The notes under the pieces are model-generated. The model was not told the DNA's origin and did not search any database. It was given only the letters and a program-made list of their open reading frames with translations. From the NCBI GenBank assembly GCA_030611105.1, contig JAUWQL010000020.1:1-37715 (forward strand): 37,715 nucleotides of DNA. Reading direction: 5' to 3'. The position numbers and the translations under genes were made by a program. Positions 23,574 to 37,715 of this stretch are shown piece after piece (the first letter of the stretch is position 1; each line of letters starts with the position of its first letter). The DNA comes from Bacteroidales bacterium (GTDB lineage: Bacteria; Bacteroidota; Bacteroidia; Bacteroidales; UBA12077).

Positions 23574-23604
23574 TTTGTGTTTTCCAAGTTTATTTATACT
23601 TTTG
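23574..23604 (+). promoter_or_regulatory. Bacteroidota consensus promoter of the rimP-nusA-infB operon
   Basis: TTTG (23574-23577), a 19-bp spacer, then TACTTTTG (23597-23604) match the TTTG-N19-TAnnTTTG consensus at both boxes. Transcription would begin near 23610 and give a leader of about 60 bases before the rimP ATG. This shows that the upstream in-frame ATG at 23577 is not the translation start. Confidence 0.8.
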
Positions 23605-23629
23605 CGGCTGAATTATACTTGATTTGTGT

Positions 23630-23647
23630 AGGGGACCTTAGTCCCCT
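23630..23647 (+). promoter_or_regulatory. GC-rich hairpin in the rimP leader
   Basis: AGGGGAC (23630-23636) and GTCCCCT (23641-23647) form a 7-bp stem with loop CTTA. It is followed by TTATTATTATC and lies 22 bp before the rimP ATG. In a long AT-rich leader this stands out. It could be an attenuator, a protein-binding site, or a brake on ribosome loading. Confidence 0.55.
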
Positions 23648-23669
23648 TTATTATTATCTTATAAAAAAG

Positions 23670-24137
23670 ATGATTACAAAAGAAAATATTAAAGATATAA
23701 TTGTAAAAATTATTAAAGATAAAAACGCTTTTGTTGTAGATATAAAAGTGAGTTCGTCGAATAAAATAAATATTGAAATTGATAGTTTCGATGGATTTAC
23801 AATTGAAGATTGCGTTGAAGTTAGCAGGTTAGTTGAAAGCAGCATAGATAGGGATAAGGAAGATTTTGAACTGGATGTTGCTTCTGCAGGATTATCGGAA
23901 CCTTTTAAAGTTATACAGCAGTATCAAAAAAATCTTGGAAAAGAGATTGAAGTTGTAACCAAGGAAGGAATTAAATTGAAAGGAATTCTTTCAAATGTTT
24001 CAGAAGAAGGATTTGAAATTGAAGAATCAAAAATGGTGAAAGTTGAAGGTAAAAAGAAAAAACAAAATGTAATTGAAAAACATCAGTTTTCTTTTAACCA
24101 GGTTAAATCAACTAAAATTATTATTAAGTTTAAATAA
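23670..24137 (+). CDS. rimP: Ribosome maturation factor RimP
   Basis: RimP helps assemble the 30S subunit. The 155-residue protein has the RimP N-terminal domain (MITKENIKDIIVKIIKDKN, DGFTIEDCVEVSRLVESSID) and the family signature FELDVASAGLSEPFK. A C-terminal Sm-like beta-barrel follows (GKEIEVVTKEGIKLKGIL, SNVSEEGFEIEE). The start at 23670 fits both the family and the mapped promoter. The longer frame from 23577 would add 31 residues encoded by promoter and leader DNA. It is the first gene of rimP-nusA-infB and lies 21 bp before nusA. Confidence 0.93.
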   Translation: MITKENIKDIIVKIIKDKNAFVVDIKVSSSNKINIEIDSFDGFTIEDCVEVSRLVESSIDRDKEDFELDVASAGLSEPFKVIQQYQKNLGKEIEVVTKEGIKLKGILSNVSEEGFEIEESKMVKVEGKKKKQNVIEKHQFSFNQVKSTKIIIKFK

Positions 24138-24158
24138 AAGTTAAACAGATAAAGTAAA

Positions 24159-25397
24159 ATGGAAAATTTGAATTTGATCGACACGTTTTCTGAATTTAAA
24201 GAATTAAAGAATATTGATCGTGCAACGATGATGACAGTTCTTGAAGATGTTTTTCGAAGCTTATTGCTTAAGAAATTCGGAACAGACGAGAATTTTGATA
24301 TCATTATAAATATTGACAAGGGAGACTTCGAAATATGGAGAAACCGCGAAGTTGTTAAAGAAGCCGATTTAGAAGACCCAAATCTTCAAATCACCTTAAA
24401 AGAAGCAAAAAAGATTGATGAAGATTATGAGGTTGGGGAAGAAGTAACCGACGAAGTAAAACTTCTTGATTTTGGAAGAAGATCAATATTAGCTCTTAGA
24501 CAAAACCTTACGAATCGTATTCTTGACCTTGAGAAAAACAATATATATAATAAGTATAAAGATAAGATTGGAGATATTGTAACAGCTGAAGTTTACCAGA
24601 TTTGGAAGAAAGAAATGTTAACCCTGGATGATGAAGGGAATGAACTCATATTACCAAAAACAGAACAAATACCTTCTGATTATTTTAGAAAAGGAGATAC
24701 AATTCGTGCAGTTGTTGTTCGTGTTGAGATGAAAAACAACAATCCATTAATTATTTTATCGCGTACAAGCTCGGTATTCTTGGAAAGATTATTCGAACTT
24801 GAAGTTCCGGAAATCTTTGATGGCTTAATTACTATTAAAAATATTGTAAGGATTCCTGGTGAAAGAGCAAAAGTTGCTGTCGAATCTTACGATGAAAGGA
24901 TTGATCCTGTTGGAGCTTGTGTTGGGATGAAAGGTTCAAGAATCCACGGTATTGTTCGTGAGTTGAGAAATGAAAATATCGATGTAATTAACTTTACAAA
25001 TAATACACAATTATTTATACAGAGATCATTAAGCCCGGCAAAAATTATGTCAATAAAATTGAACGAAGAAGAAAAACGTGCAGATGTTTATCTTCTTCCG
25101 GAAGAAGTTTCATTGGCAATTGGAAAAGGTGGGTTAAACATTAAACTTGCAGGTCAGCTGACCGGATACGAAATTGATGTTTATCGAGAAACAGATGGGG
25201 AAGACGAGGGAGATGTTGGTATTGATGAATTTGCTGATGAGATTGAAGGCTGGATACTTGATGCACTGAAAGCTGTTGGTTGCGATACAGCTAAAAGTGT
25301 TCTTGAATTATCACGTGAGGATTTAATAAAAAGAACTGATTTAGAAGAAGAAACAGTGGATGAGGTTATCCGGATTTTTAAATCAGAATTTGAATAA
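24159..25397 (+). CDS. nusA: Transcription termination/antitermination factor NusA
   Basis: NusA binds RNA polymerase and RNA and modulates pausing and termination. The 412-residue protein has the N-terminal polymerase-binding domain (about 1-130: LIDTFSEFKELKNIDRATMM, DFGRRSILALRQNL), an S1 domain (GDIVTAEVYQIWKKE), KH1 (DPVGACVGMKGSRI) and KH2 (EVSLAIGKGGLNIKLA). A short C-terminal helical segment (KSVLELSREDLIKRTDL) resembles one helix-hairpin-helix. It lacks the long acidic repeats of the E. coli protein, as is normal in this phylum. It sits between rimP and infB. Confidence 0.97.
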   Translation: MENLNLIDTFSEFKELKNIDRATMMTVLEDVFRSLLLKKFGTDENFDIIINIDKGDFEIWRNREVVKEADLEDPNLQITLKEAKKIDEDYEVGEEVTDEVKLLDFGRRSILALRQNLTNRILDLEKNNIYNKYKDKIGDIVTAEVYQIWKKEMLTLDDEGNELILPKTEQIPSDYFRKGDTIRAVVVRVEMKNNNPLIILSRTSSVFLERLFELEVPEIFDGLITIKNIVRIPGERAKVAVESYDERIDPVGACVGMKGSRIHGIVRELRNENIDVINFTNNTQLFIQRSLSPAKIMSIKLNEEEKRADVYLLPEEVSLAIGKGGLNIKLAGQLTGYEIDVYRETDGEDEGDVGIDEFADEIEGWILDALKAVGCDTAKSVLELSREDLIKRTDLEEETVDEVIRIFKSEFE

Positions 25398-25468
25398 TCT
25401 GATACTTTAGTTATAAATTAGCAAATATTTGAGTTTTTGGTTTTTTAAAATTGTTTTAGAAACAAAAT

Positions 25469-28336
25469 ATGGCAACAGGTAAAGCAACAAGACTTAGTAA
25501 AGCGGCAAGAGAATTTAATGTTGGGATATCAACTATAGTTGAATTTCTACATAAAAAGGGGTTTGATATAGATTCTAATCCTAATACAAAAGTATCACCT
25601 GAACAATATGATTTATTAGTTAAAGAATATAGTTCCGATATTGATGTGAAAAAAGAATCTGAAAAGTTAAGTTTGAATCAGTTTCATGCCAAAAACGAAA
25701 CAGTTTCAATCAATGACATACATAGAGAAGAAGAAAAAGAAGAAGATGCGTTTTTAGGTGATGAAGAAATTATAATAAAAGATGTTAGTGGTTCGGCTAA
25801 AATTACAACAAGTAAGCCTGATGTCGAGTTGATTATTGCAGATGAGGATGTTGACTCAGATAAAACTGATGAAAGTGGAGATACACAAGAAAAAATAATT
25901 GCTGCTGAAAAGACAGCTGAAATAAAAGAAACAAAAGATCCTGTTAAAGTTGTTGGTAAAATCGATTTAGATTCTTTAAACCAAAAAACCAGACCTGACA
26001 AGAAGACCAGGAAACAAAGGGATGAAGAGCAAAGATTAGCAAAACAAGAAGCTAAAATTAAACCTGAAGTTGAGGAAGCAACGCAAGAACAAGAGCATGT
26101 CACAGAAGATATAATAAGTGAAGAAAAGATTGCTGAAGAAAAAGAGGAACAAGAACCTGAAGTGTATAAGTCTTCTGTTAAAAAATTATCCGGACCAACA
26201 GTTGTTGGCAAAATAGATTTGCCTAAACCTCCACCTCCAAAAGAAAAGAAAAAAGAACCGGTAGCATCCTCCGATGATCAAAAGAATAAGAAGAAAAAAC
26301 GAAAAAGAATTTATAAAGATAAAGGAAAAGTTGATGTAGCTGGGAAACCTGGAGGCGGTTCGCCACAGGAAAAGAAAGGCGACAGGGATCAATTTAAATC
26401 CAGAAAGAAAAAGAAAAAACAATTACGGCCGGAGGTTAGTGAAGAAGATGTACAGAAACAAATTAAGGATACTTTAGCTCGATTAACTACTAAGGGTAAA
26501 TCAAAAGGAGCAAAGCACAGAAGAGAAAAGCGTGAAGCTGTTAGCCAAAAACAACAGGAGGAACTTGAACAACAAGAAGCTGAAAAGCAAATTATAAAAG
26601 TAACTGAATTTGTTTCAGTAAATGAACTTGCTACAATGATGGAAGTGCCGGCAACTGACGTTATTTCTGTTTGTATGAATCTTGGATTGTTAGTTTCTAT
26701 TAACCAGAGACTCGATGCGGAAACAATGGCTTTAGTTGCTGATGAATTTAATTTTAAGGTTGAATTTATTAGTGTTGAAGTTCAGGAAGCAATTAAAGAA
26801 GAAGAAGATACTGAAGAACAATTATTACCAAGATCGCCTATTGTTACCGTAATGGGACATGTGGATCATAGTAAAACATCATTGCTTGATTATATTCGAA
26901 AAGCGAATGTAATTGCTGGTGAGGCAGGTGGTATTACACAACATGTTGGAGCTTATAATGTTGAAATAGGTGAAGGTAAAACAATTACTTTCCTTGATAC
27001 TCCTGGTCACGAAGCCTTTACTGCAATGCGTGCTCGTGGCGCTCAGGTAACCGATATTGCAATTATTGTTGTTTCGGCCGATGATAACGTGATGCCACAA
27101 ACTGTTGAGGCTATTAATCATGCTAGTGCTGCCGGGGTTCCTATAGTTTTTGCAATTAACAAGATTGATAAAGCTGGAGCGAATCCTGAAAAAATAAAAG
27201 AAGAACTTGCAAATATGAATTACCTTGTTGAAGCATGGGGTGGAAAATATCAATCACAAGATATATCTGCTAAGCAAGGAACAAATATTGACTTATTATT
27301 AGAAAAAGTTTTGCTTGAAGCAGAAATGCTTGATCTTAAAGCGAATCCTAATAAAAAAGCATTAGGAACAGTAATTGAATCGGAACTTGATAAAGGTCGC
27401 GGATATATGTCTACTCTTCTTATTGAGGCAGGAACATTACGAATTGGAGATGTTGTTCTGGCGGGAAGCTATTTTGGTCATGCCAAAGCAATGTATAACG
27501 AAAGAGGAAAACGAATTGAAGAAGTTGGTCCTGCTGCTCCTGTTCAGATACTTGGTTTAAATGGTGCTCCACAAGCAGGAGACAAATTTAATGTACTGGA
27601 AGGAGATAAAGAAGCCAGGGAAATTGCTAACAAGCGAGAACAATTACAACGAGAACAAAGTATGCGTACTCAAAAACATATTACTCTTGATGAGATTGGC
27701 CGTCGTATTGCAATAGGAAACTTCCAGGAGATTAACATTATTGTGAAAGGTGATGTGGATGGTTCAATTGAAGCATTATCCGATTCATTAATAAAACTAA
27801 GTACCGAAGAAATCCAGGTAAATATAATTCATAAAGGTGTTGGTCAGATTTCAGAAACTGATATTATGCTGGCTGTTGCATCCAATGCTATTATAGTTGG
27901 CTTCCAGGTACGACCTTCTATGAATGCACGTAAATTAGCCGAAAAAGAGGAGATAGATATCAGGTTATATTCTATTATTTATGATGCTATTAACGAGATT
28001 AAAGATGCGATGGAAGGAATGTTGTCGCCGGATATTAAAGAGGAAATTGTGGCAACTGTTGAAGTGAGAGAGACTTTCAAAATTAAGAAAGTAGGTACTA
28101 TTGCCGGATGTATGGTTAAAGAAGGGAAAATTAACCGAAATACCAGAGTTCGTGTAATTCGTGATGGAATTGTGATTTATACAGGAGGATTGGGTTCGCT
28201 AAAACGATTTAAAGATGATGTAAAAGAAGTTGCATCAGGTTATGAATGTGGTTTAAATATTGAAAACTTCAATGATATAAAAGTTAGTGATATAGTTGAA
28301 GGTTACGAAGAAGTAGAAGTTAAAAAGAAATTGTAA
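25469..28336 (+). CDS. infB: Translation initiation factor IF2, with an unusual P-loop serine
   Basis: IF2 is the GTPase that places initiator tRNA on the 30S subunit and promotes subunit joining. The 955-residue chain starts with an IF2_N-like helix pair ([20 protein letters not shown]). About 350 residues of Glu/Lys-rich linker follow, with two copies of VVGKIDL (about 161 and 245). A second IF2_N domain (about 377-430), the G domain (about 455-620), and domains II, III and C2 complete it. The G domain has DTPGHE (G3) and NKID (G4). The G1 P-loop reads GHVDHSKT (463-470), with Ser468 where almost all IF2 proteins have Gly; codon AGT at 26870-26872 is one base from GGT. The other motifs look intact, so it is probably functional. 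A strong terminator follows. Confidence 0.97.
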
Positions 28337-28357
28337 CAGTAAATTTTAATATAATTT

Positions 28358-28389
28358 AAGGCCGTCTTAATGTAAAACGGCCTTTTTTT
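28358..28389 (+). terminator. Intrinsic terminator of the rimP-nusA-infB operon
   Basis: AAGGCCGT (28358-28365) and ACGGCCTT (28377-28384) form an 8-bp GC-rich stem with an 11-base loop, followed by a run of seven T. It lies about 20 bp after the infB stop. Confidence 0.92.
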
Positions 28390-28500
28390 ATGCATCAAAA
28401 AAAATAATCATCCGTCCTTCTTCGGGAAGATAATAATAAATCAACTCAATACGCTTTTTCGATAGTTCAATACTTAAATAACATTATTAAATTAATTCCT

Positions 28501-28532
28501 CTTGATGTTGATTTAGTATTAATTTATTTTTG
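28501..28532 (+). promoter_or_regulatory. Putative promoter of the FtsX-like permease gene
   Basis: CTTG (28501-28504), a 20-bp spacer, then TATTTTTG (28525-28532) fit the Bacteroidota consensus with one mismatch in the -33 box. Transcription would start about 20 bp before the ATG. Confidence 0.6.
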
Positions 28533-28561
28533 TTAGATACTTAATTAAATACAGGAAAGTC

Positions 28562-30937
28562 ATGTTTAAAAATTTCTTAATTATTTCACTCCGTTATTTA
28601 TTGAAGAATTTTTTATTTGTAGGAATAAACATACTTGGACTGGCAGTGGCTCTGGCGTTATGTATTACTGCATATCTCAACAACAAATATGATATGGATT
28701 GGGATAAAACTCATGCAAATTATGAAGATATCTATAAAATAAATATTACAAGAGAGATACAGGATCGACATCAGGAATATGGTATTACTCCAACGGCGCT
28801 TGCTCCATTATTAAAACAAGACATGTCGGGTGTTGAGGAAATATGTAGATATATTTCTAATCGCTCACCGGTTAAATATGATGATAAAATATTTAATAAA
28901 CGTGTTGGCTATGCAGATCCTAATTTCTTCGACATATTTACAATTGATTTGGTAAAGGGGAATAAAAATGCATTAAAAGAAAAAGGCAATGTTTTAATTA
29001 GTGAAAATATTGCCGAGGTATATTATGGAAAAGAAGATCCGATTGGGAAAGTAATTTCTGTATTGAACAATAACGGCGAAGAAACAACTTTCATTATTGC
29101 CGGTGTTTATGAGGATTTGCCCCTAAATGGTAGTTTTCGACATGAGTTGATAACACAATTTGAAAATTATACAGATATGTGGGAAGTAGATGAGCAAAAC
29201 TGGGATGATTGGATTGCCGCTACTTTTTTGCTGATTAGAGACCATGATAATATACCGCAAATCAATGAACAATTGGAAAAATATATACCTGTACAGAATG
29301 CTGCTCGCGAAGATTGGATGATAACAAGTTATTTTGTTAAATCCTTAAAAGAAGTTGCTGACGATATGGATGTATGGGCTACCTGGTTATGGACAAGTTT
29401 TCATCCGGCAGCAGTTGCAACACCTCCGATAATGGCAATTTTTATTTTGATAATTGCAGCTTTTAACTTTATGAATTCTTCTATTTCTTTTGCCGGAAAG
29501 CGACTAAAAGAAATAGGCCTTAGAAAAGTATTTGGAGGATTACGTAAGCATATTATTATCCAGTTTTTGAGTGAAAACCTGGTAATAAGCTTTATAGCCA
29601 TTATTTTAGGTATATTCTTTTCCGGATTTCTTGTTCCTGAATATTCAAGCATGTGGGAATATATGGATATAGAATTAAATTTTACAAACGACCCTGCACT
29701 AATCAGTTTTATTTTATTATTATGGATTTTTACAGCGCTTTTGGCAGGTGCATATCCTGCATTTTATATAAGCAAGTTTAATCCTGTTAAAATTTTTAGG
29801 GATAACCTAAAACTTCAAAATAAAAATGTGTTTTCAAGATTTCTTTTAGGATTTCAGTTTTTCACTTCAGTTTTAGCATTGGTTATGGGTGTTATGTTTG
29901 CTCAAAATGCCGTATTCCAGGAAAATATGGATTTGGGATATGACAAGGACAATTTAATAATTCTTGGAATGCATAACAATAATGATTATAAACCTTTTGA
30001 GCAGGTTGTAAAAAGTAATCCTAAAATTGAAATGTATGCCGGAACTAATTATCATATTGGTTATGGAAATTATAACAGATCAATTAAATATCTTGACCAA
30101 CAAATTGAGACAAACATTATGCATATTGGTTATGATTATTTAAAGACAATGATTGTTAATATTACCGATGGCCGAGGATTTGATTTAAAGAATCAAGGAG
30201 GAGATATATCAGAAAACAATGTTGTTGTAAATGAAAAGTTTGTTAAGGACTTTGGTCTTGACGATCCTATTGGGAAAACTATTTATGTTAATGATACCCT
30301 GGCTTTGCATATTATTGGTGTCTCGAATGATGTTTATTTATATGGTTTATGGGCTCCGATTAATCCATTAATATATCGGTTAGCTCCAGAGAAAGATTAT
30401 GGCAGAATTGTAATACGAACATCAAAAGAAAATCTACATGAAGTAAACGAATTTTTACGTGCAGAGTGGGCAGAACTTGTTCCCAACTACCCATACGAAG
30501 GCGAGTTTCAGGAGGAATTATTAGCAGAATCTAAACAAGTAAATAAGAATATTAAGATCATGTTTGTTTTTCTGGCAATTTGTGCATTATTCTTGTCTGC
30601 CATAGGATTATATACTCTTGTGAGTTTGAGTGTTCTTAATAGAACTAAAGAAATGGGAGTTAGAAAAGTGCATGGAGCATCTGTAAAGAAAATTATGATA
30701 ATAATTACCAAACCATTTACTTTTTTAATTATTATTTCGTCGGTATTTGGATGTGCCGGTGGATATTATATGTCGAAAATGTTAATGGATAGTGTTTGGG
30801 CTAAGCATATGGATCCAAACATGATGAGTTTTGCTTTACCTGTTCTGGTTATATTTACTATATCATTAATTACAATAATCTGGAGGGTATATAAAGCGGC
30901 ACTACAAAATCCTGCAAATTCGCTTAGATATGAATAA
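28562..30937 (+). CDS. ABC transporter permease, MacB/FtsX type
   Basis: The 791-residue protein has the duplicated MacB layout. Each half has a transmembrane helix, a large periplasmic domain and three more helices of the FtsX fold. The first half starts with SLRYLLKNFLFVGINILGLAVALAL, has a periplasmic region (about 45-270) and then the FtsX block around FMNSSISFAGKRLKEIGLRKVFGG. The second half repeats this from about residue 420 (FSRFLLGFQFFTSVLALVMG) and ends with a matching block at RTKEMGVRKVHGASVKK. The repeated RLKEIGLRKVFG / RTKEMGVRKVHG motifs are the coupling helices. No ABC ATPase gene is adjacent, so the partner lies elsewhere. The substrate is unknown; relatives export antibiotics, lipoproteins or peptides. 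Confidence 0.92.
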   Translation: MFKNFLIISLRYLLKNFLFVGINILGLAVALALCITAYLNNKYDMDWDKTHANYEDIYKINITREIQDRHQEYGITPTALAPLLKQDMSGVEEICRYISNRSPVKYDDKIFNKRVGYADPNFFDIFTIDLVKGNKNALKEKGNVLISENIAEVYYGKEDPIGKVISVLNNNGEETTFIIAGVYEDLPLNGSFRHELITQFENYTDMWEVDEQNWDDWIAATFLLIRDHDNIPQINEQLEKYIPVQNAAREDWMITSYFVKSLKEVADDMDVWATWLWTSFHPAAVATPPIMAIFILIIAAFNFMNSSISFAGKRLKEIGLRKVFGGLRKHIIIQFLSENLVISFIAIILGIFFSGFLVPEYSSMWEYMDIELNFTNDPALISFILLLWIFTALLAGAYPAFYISKFNPVKIFRDNLKLQNKNVFSRFLLGFQFFTSVLALVMGVMFAQNAVFQENMDLGYDKDNLIILGMHNNNDYKPFEQVVKSNPKIEMYAGTNYHIGYGNYNRSIKYLDQQIETNIMHIGYDYLKTMIVNITDGRGFDLKNQGGDISENNVVVNEKFVKDFGLDDPIGKTIYVNDTLALHIIGVSNDVYLYGLWAPINPLIYRLAPEKDYGRIVIRTSKENLHEVNEFLRAEWAELVPNYPYEGEFQEELLAESKQVNKNIKIMFVFLAICALFLSAIGLYTLVSLSVLNRTKEMGVRKVHGASVKKIMIIITKPFTFLIIISSVFGCAGGYYMSKMLMDSVWAKHMDPNMMSFALPVLVIFTISLITIIWRVYKAALQNPANSLRYE

Positions 30938-30992: not shown

Positions 30993-33900
30993 TTAATTGA
31001 TTAATAATTTATCAATGTAAATCTTTTTATCAACTTGTACTTTAACAATTTTTAATCCTTTCGGTAAAGATTTTATGTTAATAGGTTCATTGTCATAGAC
31101 GGTTCTTTCTAAAAGAACTTTACCCGACAAATCAAGAATTTCTAATTTATAATCATTACTTGTTTGTCTATCAATTTTAATATTTATAATTCCATTAGAT
31201 GGATTTGGATAAATAGTAAATAGACTATTTTTAATGTACTCAATAGCTGTTTCATTTTTTACATTTGTTGTAAACTCAGTATTCGCATTTAAATAGCCAT
31301 CATTAGCAATTACTGAAATTTCCGTGCTTCCGTAATTAATAGCCGATATAGAAAGTAATGAGTCTTGTACTAAATAAAGTGTTACAATATTCGCAACAGA
31401 ACTATTTACAGAGTAATTTAAATTGTCACCATCCGGATCGGTAAAATATTCATTTAAATTTATGTAATAAGTATTTTCTTTAATGAGATTTTGTGTTGGA
31501 ATGGAATTAGCTAAGTATGGTGCATTATTAACTCTGGTTACTACTAATTTAACAGGTAATACCATTTGATTTTTTTGAGGGTCATTACTGTTTATTAAAA
31601 TGTTTTTATAAAATGTTCCCTCTTGTAAATTGCTTGTGTTAAAATCTAAATGTATAGTTTCATTTTCGTTATAATCTAAATTACCTGATGTTGGATTTAT
31701 ATTTTCTATCTCAAAATTCTGATAAATTAATATAGCCATTTCATTTGTTAAATAATTCTGGTTATAACTAATTGATAATCCATCGGTCCCGTCAGAGTTT
31801 TCAATTCCCGTACTACTATAATACCCATTAACAGAAAGATACTGGAATTTTATAGTATTGTCAGATTTTACAATTATCTGAAAAGTATTACCATTTAAAT
31901 TTTCATACTGAATTATTGCTTCAGATTCATCAGAATAATAATAAACATCATCTCCATCAGGGAATAAATCACACCATTTGGCTGCTATCAGATCATTTGG
32001 GGAGTATGAATCTGGGAAATTTTGATAATAATAAGAAGTTATGTAATTGCTATTAAATGCAATAAACCCGTTTGAACTTATATAGATTGTATTTTTAATA
32101 TCTCCATAAAAAGTGAAATTGAAAGGTAAAGTTTTAGTCTCATAGCTATCGTCAGTTAAATACAATACTTCACCAATTGATTTAATATCTGTCCAGTTAT
32201 AGTCAACATTTTCAGATTCTAAACTTGATTCCCAAAAGTAAGTTGATGAACTGTCAGAATCAACAGAGATATTATATTCAAGGGTTCCTAAACCTTGGTT
32301 CTCAATTGTAAATGACGAGCTACAATCTTCTCCTAAATTTGCTGAAACATAAAGAGTATCAGTACTTATACTGATAACCGGAGGCTCAGTGGCATTTCCT
32401 ATTAACCTTAAATTCAATGATGAATTTATTGTTGCATCAGATTGTATATTTAAAACCTCTTCCAAATTACCTGCTTCTTGTGGAGCAAAATTTATTATTA
32501 TGATTTCCGATTCTCCTGGTAAAATTAATTCAGGGAATGTTGTCCCTACTTCAAAATTATTGCTTGTAAAAGTAATTGGCGAAATACTAACTTGTTTAGT
32601 TCCTGTGTTAGTACAAGTAAAATAATTGGTTTGAGTTTCGCCAACATAAATAGTATTAAACGATAAAGTATCTGTACTTATTTCTAATTCGGGGTAGCCA
32701 ATTACAGTTAATGTAACAGGTACTCTGCTTTGCTCATTTGCCGGATCGTTCGATTCAATATATAAATTTCCGTAATAAGTTCCATCATACATCCCTGATG
32801 CATTTATGTCAACTGTTACATTCGTATTGTTCCCTGATAAAACAGTTCCGGATTCAGGCGAGTAATTAAGCCAATCACCATTTCCTCCAGAACTAATAGA
32901 AGATAAATAAAGTTTATTATCTCCAAATGGAGCTGTGTACAATACATTCGAATAATTTTCAGTATTGTAATATGCAGCACCAGGTAATGCTATGCTATCG
33001 AGTATCTGAACATAGCTATTAGCTATAGTCAACTGCACAGCATAACTATCTAATTCAATATAATAAATTCCCCAGTATTTATTAACTGATCCGGAAATTT
33101 TACTTAGACCAGTGATATGATATTCAAGGTCATTAGTAAATGTATTTACCAGATTACCACTATAATCTATTTCATAAACATTTTTATCAGTATCGAATAA
33201 AGCAGTAACCATAAAATTGATGCCATTAAATTCAATTGAATTATAAGTACTAGTAGGAGCACTGAATGAACCATGTTGTGAACCATAAAAATCATAAGCA
33301 TAAAAATTACCATTGTTATTTCCAATCCAAATATATTGTCCATCATATGTTATACCATATGGTTCGGTATGTAATGGGAAACTGTTCTCAACCTCAAACG
33401 TGTTTAAATCATAAAAAATCAAAGTTTGACTACTATAATTAATGGATATTAGTTGGTTCCCTATAATTTTCAGCCCGGTACAATATTGATTGAACTCTAC
33501 AGTATCAATATTATTTAAGTTAATTAATTCAGAATCTTTATACTTTAAATTTTCTAAATTAAGCTTAATACCACTATTTCTTGTTTCGTCCGCATAAAAT
33601 CCAATTTTTGAGTTTTGTGATTTTGATACAGAATAGTACTCTTTATAAATTGAGTATTCTAATCTATTAGCCCCAACATTTGCTATATTTATAGCTAATG
33701 TTGTAGAATCACCACTGTCTAAAGTAGCATATAAAGAATCCGGATTAACAGATATTTCGGGTGGTATTAATCCAACTCCAAATAAAATGATGCTATCTTC
33801 TGGTGTATCAGGGTCATTAGTAAGCAATGTGATTTTTGCAGGAAAATCATTCTCAGAATCAGGAATAAAAGTTATTGTTAAAGTGTCATTCTTACCTTCT

Positions 33901-36900
33901 GCTATTGAAAAATTATTATCAGATAAAGTGTAAGCTCCTGAGTTTGATGATAAGCTTATATCTAAAGGCAATACTCCATTATTCTGAATTATTACAGATT
34001 TGTTCTGTTCTGTGGTCACGAATGTTGTATCAAATACTATAGTGTCTTCCTCAATTGAAATATCAGACGCGGCTATAACATTAAGTTTTACCGGGATTTT
34101 AACAATTGGGTTTACAGGGTCATTACTATTTACTGTTAAATTAGACGAATATTCTCCTCCATCAAGTCTAGCCGCATTGAAAGTTATCTTTACTTCTGCA
34201 GAATCCCCAGGGATAATATTTCCATCATTTATGGAAGTTGAAAACCATTCATTTTCTTTAATTATTAATTGTACCTGATTAAGTTGTTCGCCGTATCCTG
34301 GATTAACTTCCATACAATTAATTATTGAAACATTTATCTGGTTGTCCGACAACCAATTTTGAATATCTGTTCCCTTAAATGAATAAGTTTTAATAAAATC
34401 AGTACCATCAGGGAATCCGACTTCATTAATTCGCCCCAAGTCAGTACCTTCAATTGATAAAGATGCATATTCCCCAGAAGATGTGTAATCACCATTAAGA
34501 GTAATAATAAGGAATATAGAATCTGAATTTTCACTTACATTATTAAAATTATGATAAGTGGTTTCTCCTGTTGTTGAGTAGTATTGCACACTTGTAGAAT
34601 CATGTGAGCTGTTTTCACTGGAGATACTAAAGGACAAATTGCTTCCTCCTGCAAGGTTACTAATATACAGGTTTTTTGTCAAAGTATCCCCTGTATGCAA
34701 GTTGGCAGCTAATGTGTCAATAGATATTGTAATTATTGGAGGTAATAAAGCTTCTGCGAATACTTCAATATATAAAATACTGTCGGCAAAACTGTTTGAT
34801 ATTATTTCTATTGAATCGGTAAATGAACCTTCGCTGGAAGAAATGAATGTTAATACAAATTGCTCTTTTTCACCAGGAGCAATGATACTGTCGTTTAACG
34901 AACACTCAAATGCTGTTTCGTTCCAGTTTATTGAACTTATTTCAAGAGTATCAGTCCCAATATTTTTAATGTAAATGCTATCAGTTATTTCCTGATTTAT
35001 AAAGACTTTTTCGAATATTACAGTATCTCTTTCAATAGATATTTCCGGGGCTCCGTTAACTTCTAAAGTTACAGGTATTATATAATTGCTTGTATCCGGG
35101 TCATTATTTTCAATGACTAAATTAGCATTATAGGTTCCTGCATTTTTGCCAGATGCATTCAATGTAACAGCAATTTTCTGAGATGAACCTGCGGGGATTG
35201 TTCCAGAGCTTATATCTGTATTTAACCAGGAGGCATCTCCATTAAGTAAAAAGCTTATTTGATTTTCAATTAACTCGATAATATCCAATTTTCCATCGCT
35301 ATCGTCATCATCATTAAAATTTATTGCCTGGAAACCATTAAACATGCTATTATTTGAAGAATTTAATACAATTGCCCCACTATTTGAATATCCGTTAAAA
35401 GCTGCAAGTTGTGTGGCAGCAGGAAGAATATTTACAATTTGCCCATCTATATTAGCCTGGTTGTCTGTCCATTGTAATTGGCTGATTTGATTTGGTTGGT
35501 TAAATATTTGATGAGTAGTTTCAATTGCTCCAAAATTTATTGGCGTAGAAAAACTACTTACAAAAGTAATTTCCATGTTTTGCAACAAAGGATGACTTGT
35601 ATAATTAGACATTCCCCAATCTGCAAAAATTAGCAACCCCCCTGATATCAGGTAATTATTAATCTCGTCAAGTACTGAAGTTGAAGCGTAATTATTATAC
35701 GAGTTAATAATAACAAGATCCCAATCAGTACCGTTAACAAGTTCTGTTTCTAACTCATTCCAGTTAGTTACCAAAGTTCTTGATAAACCGAGGTTATTAA
35801 GGGCGTTGTTGTAATGGTTAGCACCAGATGTTGCTTCCATAACAAGAATGTTATCATCAGATTTACCAATATAAACTTTTTTAGTAAAATCAGGTTTAAA
35901 TACAATATCTTCTAAAGAATTTTCTACTTTATCTTCAGGTATGTTATTTGAGTAGGTTTTAATATTATATTTAAATTCTTTTTTATCTTCTGAAAAGGCC
36001 TGGTAATTTATAGCTATAGTAAAATTTAAATCACTTTCTCCTGTATTTGAAATTTCAAATGTATGTTCGGATGTTTCTCCTGTAAATAAAGTATCAGCTA
36101 ATTCGGTAACAGATACATTTATAACAGGCGGGTTATTTGTTGTAACAGAAGTTACATTTGAAATATCAGCGATATTTCCAAGAATACTAATTGGCTTAAT
36201 TGCAAAATAATATTCAGTTGATGCTTCAAGGTTTTCAATTTCGAATAATTCAACCTCTGCAGAGTCTAAAGGACTATTTGTATATGCAATTCTTATTGCA
36301 GTGTCGAAATTACTATCATTTATCAGACTTGTAGAATATCTAATATCATAACCCGAAACATATTTGCCAGAGTTGAAATTGTTTTTGGCAGTCCACTGAA
36401 TTATTACTTTATCAAATGAGGTATAATTTATACTTAGATCATTAATAGGGTATAAGACCGAATCTACTTCTACTGACAAAGAATTAAAAGCATTAAGTCT
36501 GCCCTGGCCTAATTTGCCAGCATATGAAGTATTTATATCATCAATATAATCGGAGCCAAGTAGCAATGTTTGTTTAATACCATCAGGTGTAAAATTCGTA
36601 TTGTTTGAAACTACTAATGCTGCTACACCAGAAACATGAGGGCAAGCCATTGATGTGCCCTGATAAAAACCATAACTGTTACCAGGTAATGTGCTTAGAA
36701 CACCTTCTGCGGTGTTATAGCTAGTTTCTCCTCCAGGTGCCGAAATATCAACCCAATCGCCAAAGTTAGAGTACCATGATTTTTGGTCGTTATGATTTGT
36801 CGATGCAACGGCAAAAACGGGTTCGTAATATGCAGGATACCACTGGGCGTCCTGATCGTCATTACCGGCGGCAAAAACAACTAAACCTCCTTGCATTCTT

Positions 36901-37715
36901 CCAACAGGATTTCCATCCGCATCGTAACCTGCATTAGCGATAAAATAATCAATGGCATCTAAAACAGATTGCTCATAGTTTCCAGATGATGTATATCCCC
37001 AGCTATTTTGTGCTATTACAGCACCATTGTCAGCAGCATATACAAATGCAACATCAAATCCATCAGCGTTATAGGAACCAAATGTTTGACAACTCATTAG
37101 CCTGGCACCTCCGTTAGTATCAGATCCCCCTGCAATTCCGGAAACACCTGTATTATTATTGTTAATCGCACCAATAGTTCCGGCAACATGGGTTCCATGA
37201 GGGTGTTCAGCAATTGATCCTGTATTATCACCAAAGTTATATCCGTAAATGTCATCTATATATCCATTAGCATCATCATCAACTCCAGTTGTTCCATTTT
37301 TTTCTTGCACATTTATCCACATCGCATTAGTTAAATCCTGATGATTATAGTCAATTCCACCGTCTATAATTGCAACAACAACATCGTCACCGCCCGTTTC
37401 AACTGACCATGCCTCGGTTAGAGAGATATCTGCTCCTGAAGTTCCGCTTGTTTGACCGGTGTTTTCATAATGCCATTGTTCATCAAATCTTGGGTCATTA
37501 AAAACAGTATTAGTATGAACTGAACTTTTAGGCATTACATTTATGCGTTTAGCATAATAGTATTCTGTAAGTTCAAAGAAATTCGTTTTGTCTAGTTCGG
37601 ATTTTAAGTTTTGGGTTACTAATTTTTCTTTCATTTTTAGCTCAACTATATACCATTGATTCAAGCCAAATTCTTCATGTCTTCTATTAAATTTAGAATT
37701 GGTTGGAAACAAAAA
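30993..37715 (-). CDS. Large subtilisin-like (S8) peptidase with a T9SS sorting domain, 5' end outside window
   Basis: The open frame continues to the last base; an apparent TTG start at 37712 is not real, so the signal peptide lies outside the window. Numbering from that codon, the 2239 visible residues hold: the end of a propeptide (1-75); an S8 domain (about 78-412) with AIIDGGID (Asp117), HPHGTHVAG (His172), AAGN (Asn284) and GTSMACPHVSG (Ser354), so the triad is complete; a fibronectin-III-like domain (about 420-525); then 3.5 copies of a two-domain unit (530-2062). An Ig/cadherin-like domain follows (NNAPYLANSIP, 2063-2150), and the chain ends in a T9SS type A sorting domain (about 2160-2239: FTIYPNPSNG, LEILDLSGKVLLE). 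It is therefore a secreted or surface-anchored protease. Its substrate is unknown. Confidence 0.93.
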   Translation of the reverse strand, partial: FLFPTNSKFNRRHEEFGLNQWYIVELKMKEKLVTQNLKSELDKTNFFELTEYYYAKRINVMPKSSVHTNTVFNDPRFDEQWHYENTGQTSGTSGADISLTEAWSVETGGDDVVVAIIDGGIDYNHQDLTNAMWINVQEKNGTTGVDDDANGYIDDIYGYNFGDNTGSIAEHPHGTHVAGTIGAINNNNTGVSGIAGGSDTNGGARLMSCQTFGSYNADGFDVAFVYAADNGAVIAQNSWGYTSSGNYEQSVLDAIDYFIANAGYDADGNPVGRMQGGLVVFAAGNDDQDAQWYPAYYEPVFAVASTNHNDQKSWYSNFGDWVDISAPGGETSYNTAEGVLSTLPGNSYGFYQGTSMACPHVSGVAALVVSNNTNFTPDGIKQTLLLGSDYIDDINTSYAGKLGQGRLNAFNSLSVEVDSVLYPINDLSINYTSFDKVIIQWTAKNNFNSGKYVSGYDIRYSTSLINDSNFDTAIRIAYTNSPLDSAEVELFEIENLEASTEYYFAIKPISILGNIADISNVTSVTTNNPPVINVSVTELADTLFTGETSEHTFEISNTGESDLNFTIAINYQAFSEDKKEFKYNIKTYSNNIPEDKVENSLEDIVFKPDFTKKVYIGKSDDNILVMEATSGANHYNNALNNLGLSRTLVTNWNELETELVNGTDWDLVIINSYNNYASTSVLDEINNYLISGGLLIFADWGMSNYTSHPLLQNMEITFVSSFSTPINFGAIETTHQIFNQPNQISQLQWTDNQANIDGQIVNILPAATQLAAFNGYSNSGAIVLNSSNNSMFNGFQAINFNDDDDSDGKLDIIELIENQISFLLNGDASWLNTDISSGTIPAGSSQKIAVTLNASGKNAGTYNANLVIENNDPDTSNYIIPVTLEVNGAPEISIERDTVIFEKVFINQEITDSIYIKNIGTDTLEISSINWNETAFECSLNDSIIAPGEKEQFVLTFISSSEGSFTDSIEIISNSFADSILYIEVFAEALLPPIITISIDTLAANLHTGDTLTKNLYISNLAGGSNLSFSISSENSSHDSTSVQYYSTTGETTYHNFNNVSENSDSIFLIITLNGDYTSSGEYASLSIEGTDLGRINEVGFPDGTDFIKTYSFKGTDIQNWLSDNQINVSIINCMEVNPGYGEQLNQVQLIIKENEWFSTSINDGNIIPGDSAEVKITFNAARLDGGEYSSNLTVNSNDPVNPIVKIPVKLNVIAASDISIEEDTIVFDTTFVTTEQNKSVIIQNNGVLPLDISLSSNSGAYTLSDNNFSIAEGKNDTLTITFIPDSENDFPAKITLLTNDPDTPEDSIILFGVGLIPPEISVNPDSLYATLDSGDSTTLAINIANVGANRLEYSIYKEYYSVSKSQNSKIGFYADETRNSGIKLNLENLKYKDSELINLNNIDTVEFNQYCTGLKIIGNQLISINYSSQTLIFYDLNTFEVENSFPLHTEPYGITYDGQYIWIGNNNGNFYAYDFYGSQHGSFSAPTSTYNSIEFNGINFMVTALFDTDKNVYEIDYSGNLVNTFTNDLEYHITGLSKISGSVNKYWGIYYIELDSYAVQLTIANSYVQILDSIALPGAAYYNTENYSNVLYTAPFGDNKLYLSSISSGGNGDWLNYSPESGTVLSGNNTNVTVDINASGMYDGTYYGNLYIESNDPANEQSRVPVTLTVIGYPELEISTDTLSFNTIYVGETQTNYFTCTNTGTKQVSISPITFTSNNFEVGTTFPELILPGESEIIIINFAPQEAGNLEEVLNIQSDATINSSLNLRLIGNATEPPVISISTDTLYVSANLGEDCSSSFTIENQGLGTLEYNISVDSDSSSTYFWESSLESENVDYNWTDIKSIGEVLYLTDDSYETKTLPFNFTFYGDIKNTIYISSNGFIAFNSNYITSYYYQNFPDSYSPNDLIAAKWCDLFPDGDDVYYYSDESEAIIQYENLNGNTFQIIVKSDNTIKFQYLSVNGYYSSTGIENSDGTDGLSISYNQNYLTNEMAILIYQNFEIENINPTSGNLDYNENETIHLDFNTSNLQEGTFYKNILINSNDPQKNQMVLPVKLVVTRVNNAPYLANSIPTQNLIKENTYYINLNEYFTDPDGDNLNYSVNSSVANIVTLYLVQDSLLSISAINYGSTEISVIANDGYLNANTEFTTNVKNETAIEYIKNSLFTIYPNPSNGIINIKIDRQTSNDYKLEILDLSGKVLLERTVYDNEPINIKSLPKGLKIVKVQVDKKIYIDKLLIN
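31527..36125 (-). repeat. Repeated two-domain units with different inserts in the subtilase
   Basis: Each unit starts PP-x-I-x-[IV]-x-x-D-[ST]-L, has an N-x-G motif, an insert, then W-[LF]-[NS]...[SD]-G-x-[IV]-x-x-G and a ...SNDP... strand. A choice-of-anchor D (ASH/SPD2-like) domain follows, starting [DP]-x-x-I-x-x-D-T-[ILV]-x-F. The four copies run 36125-34743, 34742-33765, 33764-32385 and 32384-31527; the last lacks the second domain. The inserts differ: an amidotransferase-like fold, a beta-sandwich-like segment, a beta-propeller-like segment and a nidogen-like segment. Confidence 0.75.

What the first reader, a model, noticed from the sequence alone, without database searches (positions are those of the whole stretch)
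31527..36125. Subtilase tail built from one repeated unit that accepts a different domain in each copy
Seen directly: four copies of a half-domain (PPxIxIxxDTL...NxG) are each interrupted and then resumed at the same place (WLN...SGTIPAG / WFSTSINDGNIIPG / WLNYSPESGTVLSG / NINPTSGNLDYNE). Three of them are followed by an ASH/choice-of-anchor D domain. The interruptions are unrelated: about 245 residues resembling a class I amidotransferase-like fold (580-825), about 115 of beta-sandwich type (1040-1155), about 235 with propeller-like YDGQYIWIGNNNGNFYAYD repeats (1370-1605), and about 175 nidogen-like (1825-2000, with TLPFNFTFYGDIKNTIYISS). This looks like a docking site for domain cassettes, perhaps a way to vary binding on a secreted protease.
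Basis: partly seen in the sequence, partly recalled or inferred. Interest (0 to 1): 0.7.

Follow-up and report, generated by a model that had tools for sequence, protein, structure and literature searches.

The report
One host domain, many inserted domains
The tail of this secreted bacterial protease repeats one small immunoglobulin-like domain that is split at the same loop each time to hold a different larger domain, and related bacteria use the same host domain and the same loop in many other proteins.

Summary
The ORF at 30993-37715 (-) is a subtilase with a type IX secretion tail. Four copies of a ~95-residue BACON_2/PapD-like (ASH-superfamily) domain are each split at the same loop by an insert (123-261 residues); copies 1-3 are each followed by an unsplit ASH domain. 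Natural unsplit copies exist; in one related protein a split and an unsplit copy are 56% identical outside the insert. In the AlphaFold model of copy 4 both halves are confident, and Foldseek aligns the model with one HYDIN PapD-like domain (TM 0.73 by target). In the window and fetched relatives I counted 195 split copies in 98 ORFs, in 30 insert clusters. Nine Pfam families were over cut-off in 34 inserts scanned. All 129 split pairs detected by an independent model lie at one stretch of the host. All 195 inserts in the strict set are longer than their host, against the published general trend. Rapid variation of binding is not supported: 29 of 29 scaffold pairs at 60% identity or more share the insert type, and insert borders show no repeats above chance. 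Best reading: a stalk holding binding domains sideways; the function is inferred, not tested.

The parts
36456..37715 (-). Peptidase S8 N-terminal region and catalytic domain (residues 1-420; motifs AIIDGG 115, HGTHVAG 173, GTSMACP 353); 5' end cut by the contig edge
   Evidence: Pfam PF00082 5e-41 and PF16361; motifs; same-genus orthologue has a hydrophobic, signal-peptide-like start
36132..36464 (-). fn3-like domain (residues 418-528)
   Evidence: weak Pfam fn3 E 0.012, under its cut-off
36009..36131 (-). Host domain copy 1, first half
   Evidence: pLDDT 91-96 over model residues 1-40
35235..36008 (-). Insert 1: alpha/beta core, flavodoxin-like (class I amidotransferase-like is possible)
   Evidence: AlphaFold secondary structure, moderate confidence; Foldseek receiver and flavodoxin-like hits E about 0.01
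35052..35234 (-). Host domain copy 1, second half
   Evidence: pLDDT 86-96
34743..35051 (-). ASH/HYDIN-like spacer 1 (unsplit)
   Evidence: PF22544 best stretch 890-978; unsplit unit 890-985
34623..34742 (-). Host domain copy 2, first half
34254..34622 (-). Insert 2: ~123 aa family without a Pfam match
   Evidence: no Pfam match; cluster of 13 copies in 10 ORFs; alignment A4 of 10 of them
34071..34253 (-). Host domain copy 2, second half
33765..34070 (-). ASH/HYDIN-like spacer 2 (unsplit)
   Evidence: unsplit unit 1218-1309
33648..33764 (-). Host domain copy 3, first half
32880..33647 (-). Insert 3: Glu_cyclase_2 match (a beta-propeller family by recall)
   Evidence: PF05096 23.8 bits against cut-off 22.3
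32697..32879 (-). Host domain copy 3, second half
   Evidence: BACON_2 profile positions 41-84, under the cut-off
32385..32696 (-). ASH/HYDIN-like spacer 3 (unsplit)
   Evidence: choice_anch_D best stretch 1665-1762; unsplit unit 1675-1767
32262..32384 (-). Host domain copy 4, first half
   Evidence: pLDDT 76-98 over model residues 1-50
31719..32261 (-). Insert 4: nidogen-like (NIDO)
   Evidence: PF06119 28.6 bits against cut-off 25
31536..31718 (-). Host domain copy 4, second half
   Evidence: pLDDT 84-97 from model residue 231 on
31236..31532 (-). Cadherin/Ig-like linker domain (label recalled; no Pfam match)
   Evidence: no Pfam match
30996..31235 (-). Type IX secretion sorting tail
   Evidence: PF18962 2e-10; TIGR04183 1e-8

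Best explanation
The tail is a chain of small Ig-like domains that alternate in type. A BACON_2/PapD-like host domain accepts, at one fixed loop in its middle (after the fourth strand of the copy-4 model), a whole guest domain larger than itself. The ASH domain that follows it is left whole. Supported by results: the halves belong to one domain, the site is fixed, guests of many families use it, and the unit [host+guest]-[ASH] repeats. Inferred: host and ASH domains stack into a semi-rigid stalk, each guest is tied in at both ends and points sideways, and the guests (lectin-, adhesin-, propeller- and nidogen-like) bind surfaces or substrate. After Sec export and type IX secretion the stalk would hold the N-terminal subtilase, or other heads in other proteins, close to that substrate. 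The socket seems to have been refilled many times in the history of the group, but slowly. I put the architecture at about 0.95 and the stalk-and-binding function at about 0.55.
For: Joined halves of copies 1 and 3 match BACON_2 without a break over profile positions 4-83 and 1-84, above the cut-off. An HMM made only from 69 natural unsplit copies finds 246 full copies and 129 complementary split pairs, all at model positions 36-55 of 100. The gap between halves is bimodal: 165 of 377 pairs at 15 aa or less, 199 above 100 aa, 13 between. One protein holds an unsplit and a split copy that are 56% identical over 87 columns, apart from the insert. Copy-4 model: first half pLDDT 76-98, second half 84-97; it aligns over 287-290 columns (gaps included) with single PapD-like domains, 2e6j (TM by target 0.73) and 6fvi (0.60). 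Neighbouring units: 74 split-unsplit and 73 unsplit-split against 10 split-split and 39 unsplit-unsplit. 37 of 42 ORFs with two or more split copies carry two or more insert types. Guests over Pfam cut-offs: LamG, Cleaved_Adhesin, GEVED, NIDO, P_proprotein, Reelin_subrepeat-B, DUF4394, Glu_cyclase_2, DUF4350.
Against: The sideways geometry and the binding role are inferred; no guest was tested, and most of both inserts has low confidence in the models. In one search the best rows by E-value are long axonemal chains with TM under 0.2, and the rmsd to 2e6j and 6fvi is 10.7 and 11.5 A over the whole alignment, so part of the alignment is poor; that the 0.73 needs both halves is my inference. For copy 1, Foldseek aligned only about 60 columns with PapD-like domains, so closure of that copy was not confirmed. 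Copies 2 and 4 miss the BACON_2 cut-off when joined (21.0 and 17.7 bits against 25). 23 of 34 scanned inserts have no Pfam match over a cut-off, so some of the 30 clusters may be distant relatives. The split-position test needs fragments long enough to detect, so splits near the ends of the host would be missed. Six pairs have gaps of 31-100 aa and lie outside the strict set.
Confidence: 0.75

Rival explanations
1. Ordinary string of sequential domains: the first and second 'halves' are separate short linker motifs that flank each domain.
For: Halves are short, and in the whole protein BACON_2 matches only one second half.
Against: Natural unsplit copies with both halves together, 123 of 377 pairs with a gap of 5 aa or less; the HMM from unsplit copies only; the 56% identical split/unsplit pair in one protein; the copy-4 model aligned with one PapD-like domain.
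Confidence: 0.04
2. An active cassette system: guests are exchanged quickly, by site-specific or homologous recombination, to vary binding within a species.
For: Different guest sets in homologous subtilases; 30 insert clusters at one socket.
Against: 29 of 29 scaffold pairs with 60% identity or more share the insert type; the nearest scaffold shares the insert type in 105 of 195 cases against a shuffled mean of 13. The same-genus orthologue has guests of the same clusters in copies 2-4. The longest repeat shared by the two borders of an insert is 6-8 bases, as in random pairs (mean 7.3, 95% at 10). Two imperfect inverted repeats (71% and 75%) near the borders of inserts 2 and 1 were not pursued.
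Confidence: 0.08
3. Few entries, much copying: guests entered the host domain a few times long ago, and host+guest pairs have since been copied as units by duplication and shuffling. (This shares the architecture of the best explanation, so the odds of the two overlap.)
For: Same-type clustering of scaffolds; the same guest clusters recur in many ORFs; a guest of the NIDO-containing cluster is in 10 of 17 subtilases.
Against: 30 insert clusters and nine Pfam families at one site still need many entries; scaffold copies of one protein that are 55-57% identical carry different guests (two such cases among the top pairs). I made no tree that separates entry into the host from shuffling of units.
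Confidence: 0.35

Closest known systems
BACON_2 (PF19190) and BACON domains of Bacteroidota and crAss-like phages
   Same: Same domain by sequence for copies 1 and 3 when halves are joined; tandem repeats are known in phages (abstract of PMC6949934 in the listing)
   Different: I saw no mention of split copies there: a term search of PMC6949934 found no 'inserted', 'interrupt', 'nested' or 'split', and its three uses of 'insertion' are in a figure legend on profile logos (paper not read through)
ASH / HYDIN / CEP192 PapD-like domains (PF22544, PF15780)
   Same: Joined copies 1-3 match PF22544 over the cut-off; the copy-4 model aligns with HYDIN and CEP192 domains; unsplit ASH units lie between the split copies
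   Different: The spacers in this window are unsplit; HYDIN and CEP192 are eukaryotic
Domain-insertion architectures A1-B-A2 surveyed in PMC13114784
   Same: A host domain interrupted by a guest
   Different: There inserts are smaller than hosts in 77% of events and positions are spread evenly; here 195 of 195 inserts of the strict set are longer than the host and one site is used
Integrin beta subunit, I-like domain inserted in the Ig-like hybrid domain (recalled)
   Same: Ligand-binding domain inserted in an Ig-like domain
   Different: One guest type, one copy; from memory, not tested
Persicobacter psychrovividus WP_338399158.1, 'S8 family serine peptidase' on plasmid pPP4
   Same: Subtilase with one split host copy and a guest of the NIDO-containing cluster
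   Different: One split copy found in the stretch fetched

Membership tests
BACON_2 (PF19190) | profile match over the curated cut-off of 25 bits | tested here: inconclusive
   Joined halves: copies 1 and 3 pass (31.8, 43.4), copies 2 and 4 do not (21.0, 17.7); intact protein 17.2
HYDIN/ASH PapD-like superfamily (PF22544) | profile match over the cut-off of 25.5 bits | tested here: met
   Joined copies 1-3 pass (41.8, 37.1, 27.0); copy 4 is just under (24.6)
HYDIN/ASH PapD-like superfamily (PF22544) | PapD-like fold of the joined halves | tested here: met
   copy-4 model with 2e6j TM 0.73 by target, rmsd 10.7 over the whole alignment; copy 1 not confirmed; copies 2 and 3 not modelled
Peptidase S8 | catalytic domain with Asp, His, Ser motifs | tested here: met
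   PF00082 141 bits; three motifs in order
Type IX secretion cargo | C-terminal sorting domain | tested here: met
   PF18962 and TIGR04183 over cut-off
Type IX secretion cargo | N-terminal signal peptide | tested here: inconclusive
   outside the contig; the orthologue has a hydrophobic start, no signal-peptide program was run
Domain-insertion host (A1-B-A2) | two separated parts form one structural domain around another domain | tested here: met
   sequence evidence; model of copy 4; no solved structure
Class I amidotransferase-like (insert 1) | profile or fold match | tested here: inconclusive
   DUF4159 E 0.019 under cut-off; flavodoxin-like and receiver folds; hhalign probability 3.3. An insert of another protein matches DUF4350 over the cut-off

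The most novel reading that the evidence does not exclude
Bacteroidota use one small Ig-like domain as a dedicated natural socket: a single loop of a ~95-residue host has taken in, many times independently, whole domains larger than the host and of unrelated folds. This gives secreted proteins a stalk with exchangeable side modules and reverses the size rule reported for domain insertions.
Probability: 0.5. Interest if true: 0.75.

Novelty: new variant of a known kind. Interest (0 to 1): 0.6.

Why it matters
Domain insertion is common, but the survey read in part here describes hosts usually larger than their inserts and no preferred site. A small host that takes many larger guests at one loop is a ready natural scaffold for showing binding domains and makes the rules of insertion tolerance testable. 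It also affects annotation: in the whole protein BACON_2 matches only one half of one copy, below its cut-off, so these units are easily missed.

Tried and rejected
The one scan of genome contigs, with the whole protein, gave one relative (L006). Two scans of viral contigs, one peptide pattern each, found no relative. In plasmids 268 records and in phages 30 records matched; of the 15 rows shown for each, nearly all match the subtilase head and what directly follows it, and the Persicobacter plasmids reach the tail. Alignments mixing several copies for structure prediction placed partial rows on the wrong copy and were dropped. Profile comparison of insert 1 with ThuA-like inserts was negative. 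The repeat finder on the gene listed 20 of 35 direct families and 25 of 38 inverted pairs; a direct test of the four pairs of insert borders found nothing above random pairs. A search of PF19190 in six genomes was a small check only.

Papers: nine searches for BACON insertion, nested or discontinuous Ig-like domains, GEVED with choice-of-anchor D, PapD-like/ASH in bacteria, and insertion surveys. Four returned no paper; of the others I saw the listings and the starts of abstracts, and nothing there describes this architecture. The library holds open-access papers only. PMC13114784: abstract, term search, section 2.2 (part 1 of 2) and section 2.3; supplements not seen. PMC6949934: term-search passages only.

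Rows dropped: of 377 pairs, 195 were kept as split (gap 60 or more, second half E 1e-4 or better, first half E 0.05 or better) and 131 as contiguous (gap 15 or less, same limits); 51 fell outside both sets, among them pairs with gaps of 31-100. Regions were fetched because they held host matches or long ORFs, so the ratio of split to unsplit copies is not a genome-wide frequency. 34 inserts were scanned against Pfam (4 of the window, 30 others), out of 195.
Full report
What is there. The frame 30993-37715 (-) encodes 2240 residues and is open at its 5' end because the contig is exactly the window. It has a Peptidase_S8 domain with its three catalytic motifs, four interrupted repeats, three unsplit ASH-type domains and a type IX sorting tail. 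A same-genus orthologue split over two contigs (76% identical over residues 2-722, 68% over 770-2154) adds a start that looks like a signal peptide.

One domain, not two. (1) Joining the halves gives BACON_2 matches without a break in copies 1 and 3, and matches to the HYDIN-like family PF22544 in all four, copy 4 just under its cut-off. (2) Natural unsplit versions exist. A search of 119 genomes of the same order with the joined model found matches in 86; in the capped list most matches are either full-length or begin near position 34-48, with some in between. A model made only from 69 natural unsplit copies finds 246 full copies and 129 complementary split pairs, every one at model positions 36-55 of 100; splits close to the ends of the domain would be missed by this method. 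In one relative (L039) an unsplit copy and a split copy of the same protein are 56% identical over 87 columns and differ by the insert. (3) The AlphaFold model of copy 4, from a thin alignment (8 rows, window and L006 only), gives pLDDT 76-98 for the first half and 84-97 for the second, with most of the insert under 50. Foldseek aligns it over 290 columns, gaps included, with the 112-residue C-terminal PapD-like domain of HYDIN (2e6j, TM by target 0.73, rmsd 10.7) and over 287 columns with a CEP192 PapD-like domain (6fvi, 0.60, rmsd 11.5); the rows above these by E-value are mostly long axonemal chains with TM under 0.2. In the copy-1 model only about 60 columns aligned with 2e6j, with TM 0.45, so I infer that 0.73 needs both halves; the high rmsd says that part of the alignment is poor. 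The copy-1 model has confident halves (91-96 over residues 1-40, and 86-96) but fold search did not confirm that they close. Copies 2 and 3 were not modelled.

How general. In 728 non-redundant ORFs from fetched loci there are 377 first-second half pairs in 132 ORFs, with a bimodal gap: 165 at 15 residues or less, 13 at 16-100, 199 above 100. Reversed and shuffled ORFs give no pair. With strict limits there are 195 split copies in 98 ORFs from 55 genomes or records, the window included, and 131 unsplit copies; the inserts form 30 BLAST clusters, eight of them single. Nine Pfam families are over their cut-offs in the 34 inserts scanned: GEVED, Laminin_G_3, NIDO, Reelin_subrepeat-B, P_proprotein, DUF4394, Glu_cyclase_2, DUF4350 and Cleaved_Adhesin; 23 of the 34 had no match over a cut-off. 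That DUF4394 and Glu_cyclase_2 are propellers is recalled. In a sample of the phylum 72 of 296 genomes have the host domain at E 1e-6 or better; this counts the host, not the split form. A split copy is also in a contig labelled Balneolia (L006) and in Persicobacter psychrovividus (L149).

Rules seen. Neighbouring units within 25 residues: 74 split-unsplit, 73 unsplit-split, 39 unsplit-unsplit, 10 split-split. 37 of 42 ORFs with two or more split copies have two or more insert types. Each of the 195 inserts of the strict set (120-357 residues, median 219) is longer than its host (median 94); six pairs with gaps of 31-100 exist outside that set. A recent survey reports the opposite trend (inserts smaller in 77% of events) and evenly spread positions, and its main text does not use the words immunoglobulin, Ig-like, BACON or PapD.

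Tempo. Of 98 ORFs with split copies, 17 have an S8 head; the other 16 heads are 34-64% identical to the window's, four of them compared over 150 residues or less, and their guest sets differ but overlap: a guest of the NIDO-containing cluster is in 10 of 17. Turnover is slow. Scaffold pairs at 60% identity or more share their insert type in 29 of 29 cases; at 50-60%, 28 agree and 25 differ; the nearest scaffold has the same type in 105 of 195 cases against a shuffled mean of 13. The same-genus orthologue has guests of the same clusters in copies 2-4. The two borders of each window insert share at most 8 bases, as random pairs of places do. Host and guest therefore seem to travel together for long periods and are recombined rarely.

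Mechanism. Supported: a single-site host domain with large guests, alternating with whole ASH domains, on a protein with a type IX secretion tail. Inferred: the Ig-like domains form the backbone, the guests project from the loop after the fourth strand and are tied at both ends, and many guests are binding modules (lectin-like, adhesin-like, nidogen-like, propeller), so the tail would hold the protease near particles or cell surfaces. The host is used with other heads too: 17 of 98 ORFs show an S8 domain and 23 of 98 a tail like this one, though many ORFs are cut by the fetched stretch.

Verdict. 'Docking site for domain cassettes' is fair as an evolutionary description; 'a way to vary binding' is not supported on short time scales. 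I rate it a new variant of a known kind (domain insertion), with the single site and the reversed size relation as the unusual points.

Noticed in passing
L180 (G393:C4), insert cluster 9: Six guests in one protein form one cluster; the one scanned matches DUF4350 over its cut-off, with weak matches to ABC_transp_aux and to the GATase-like domain of MBTPS1, which recalls the subtilase plus alpha/beta insert arrangement of window copy 1.
   Followed up: partly
G091:C8, G091:C88, G107:C115, G108:C16: Very large open frames (5102-7116 aa) with host-domain matches.
   Followed up: partly
L181:8125-8790 (insert cluster 10): A guest matches Cleaved_Adhesin over its cut-off, a family recalled from gingipain-type proteins.
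   Followed up: no
window 34240-34346 and 35969-36031: Two imperfect inverted repeats (71% and 75% complementary) lie near the borders of inserts 2 and 1; likely chance in A+T-rich DNA, not tested one by one.
   Followed up: partly
window 23577-30937: RimP, NusA and IF2 genes in a row, then an FtsX/MacB permease gene that runs tail to tail with the subtilase gene.
   Followed up: no
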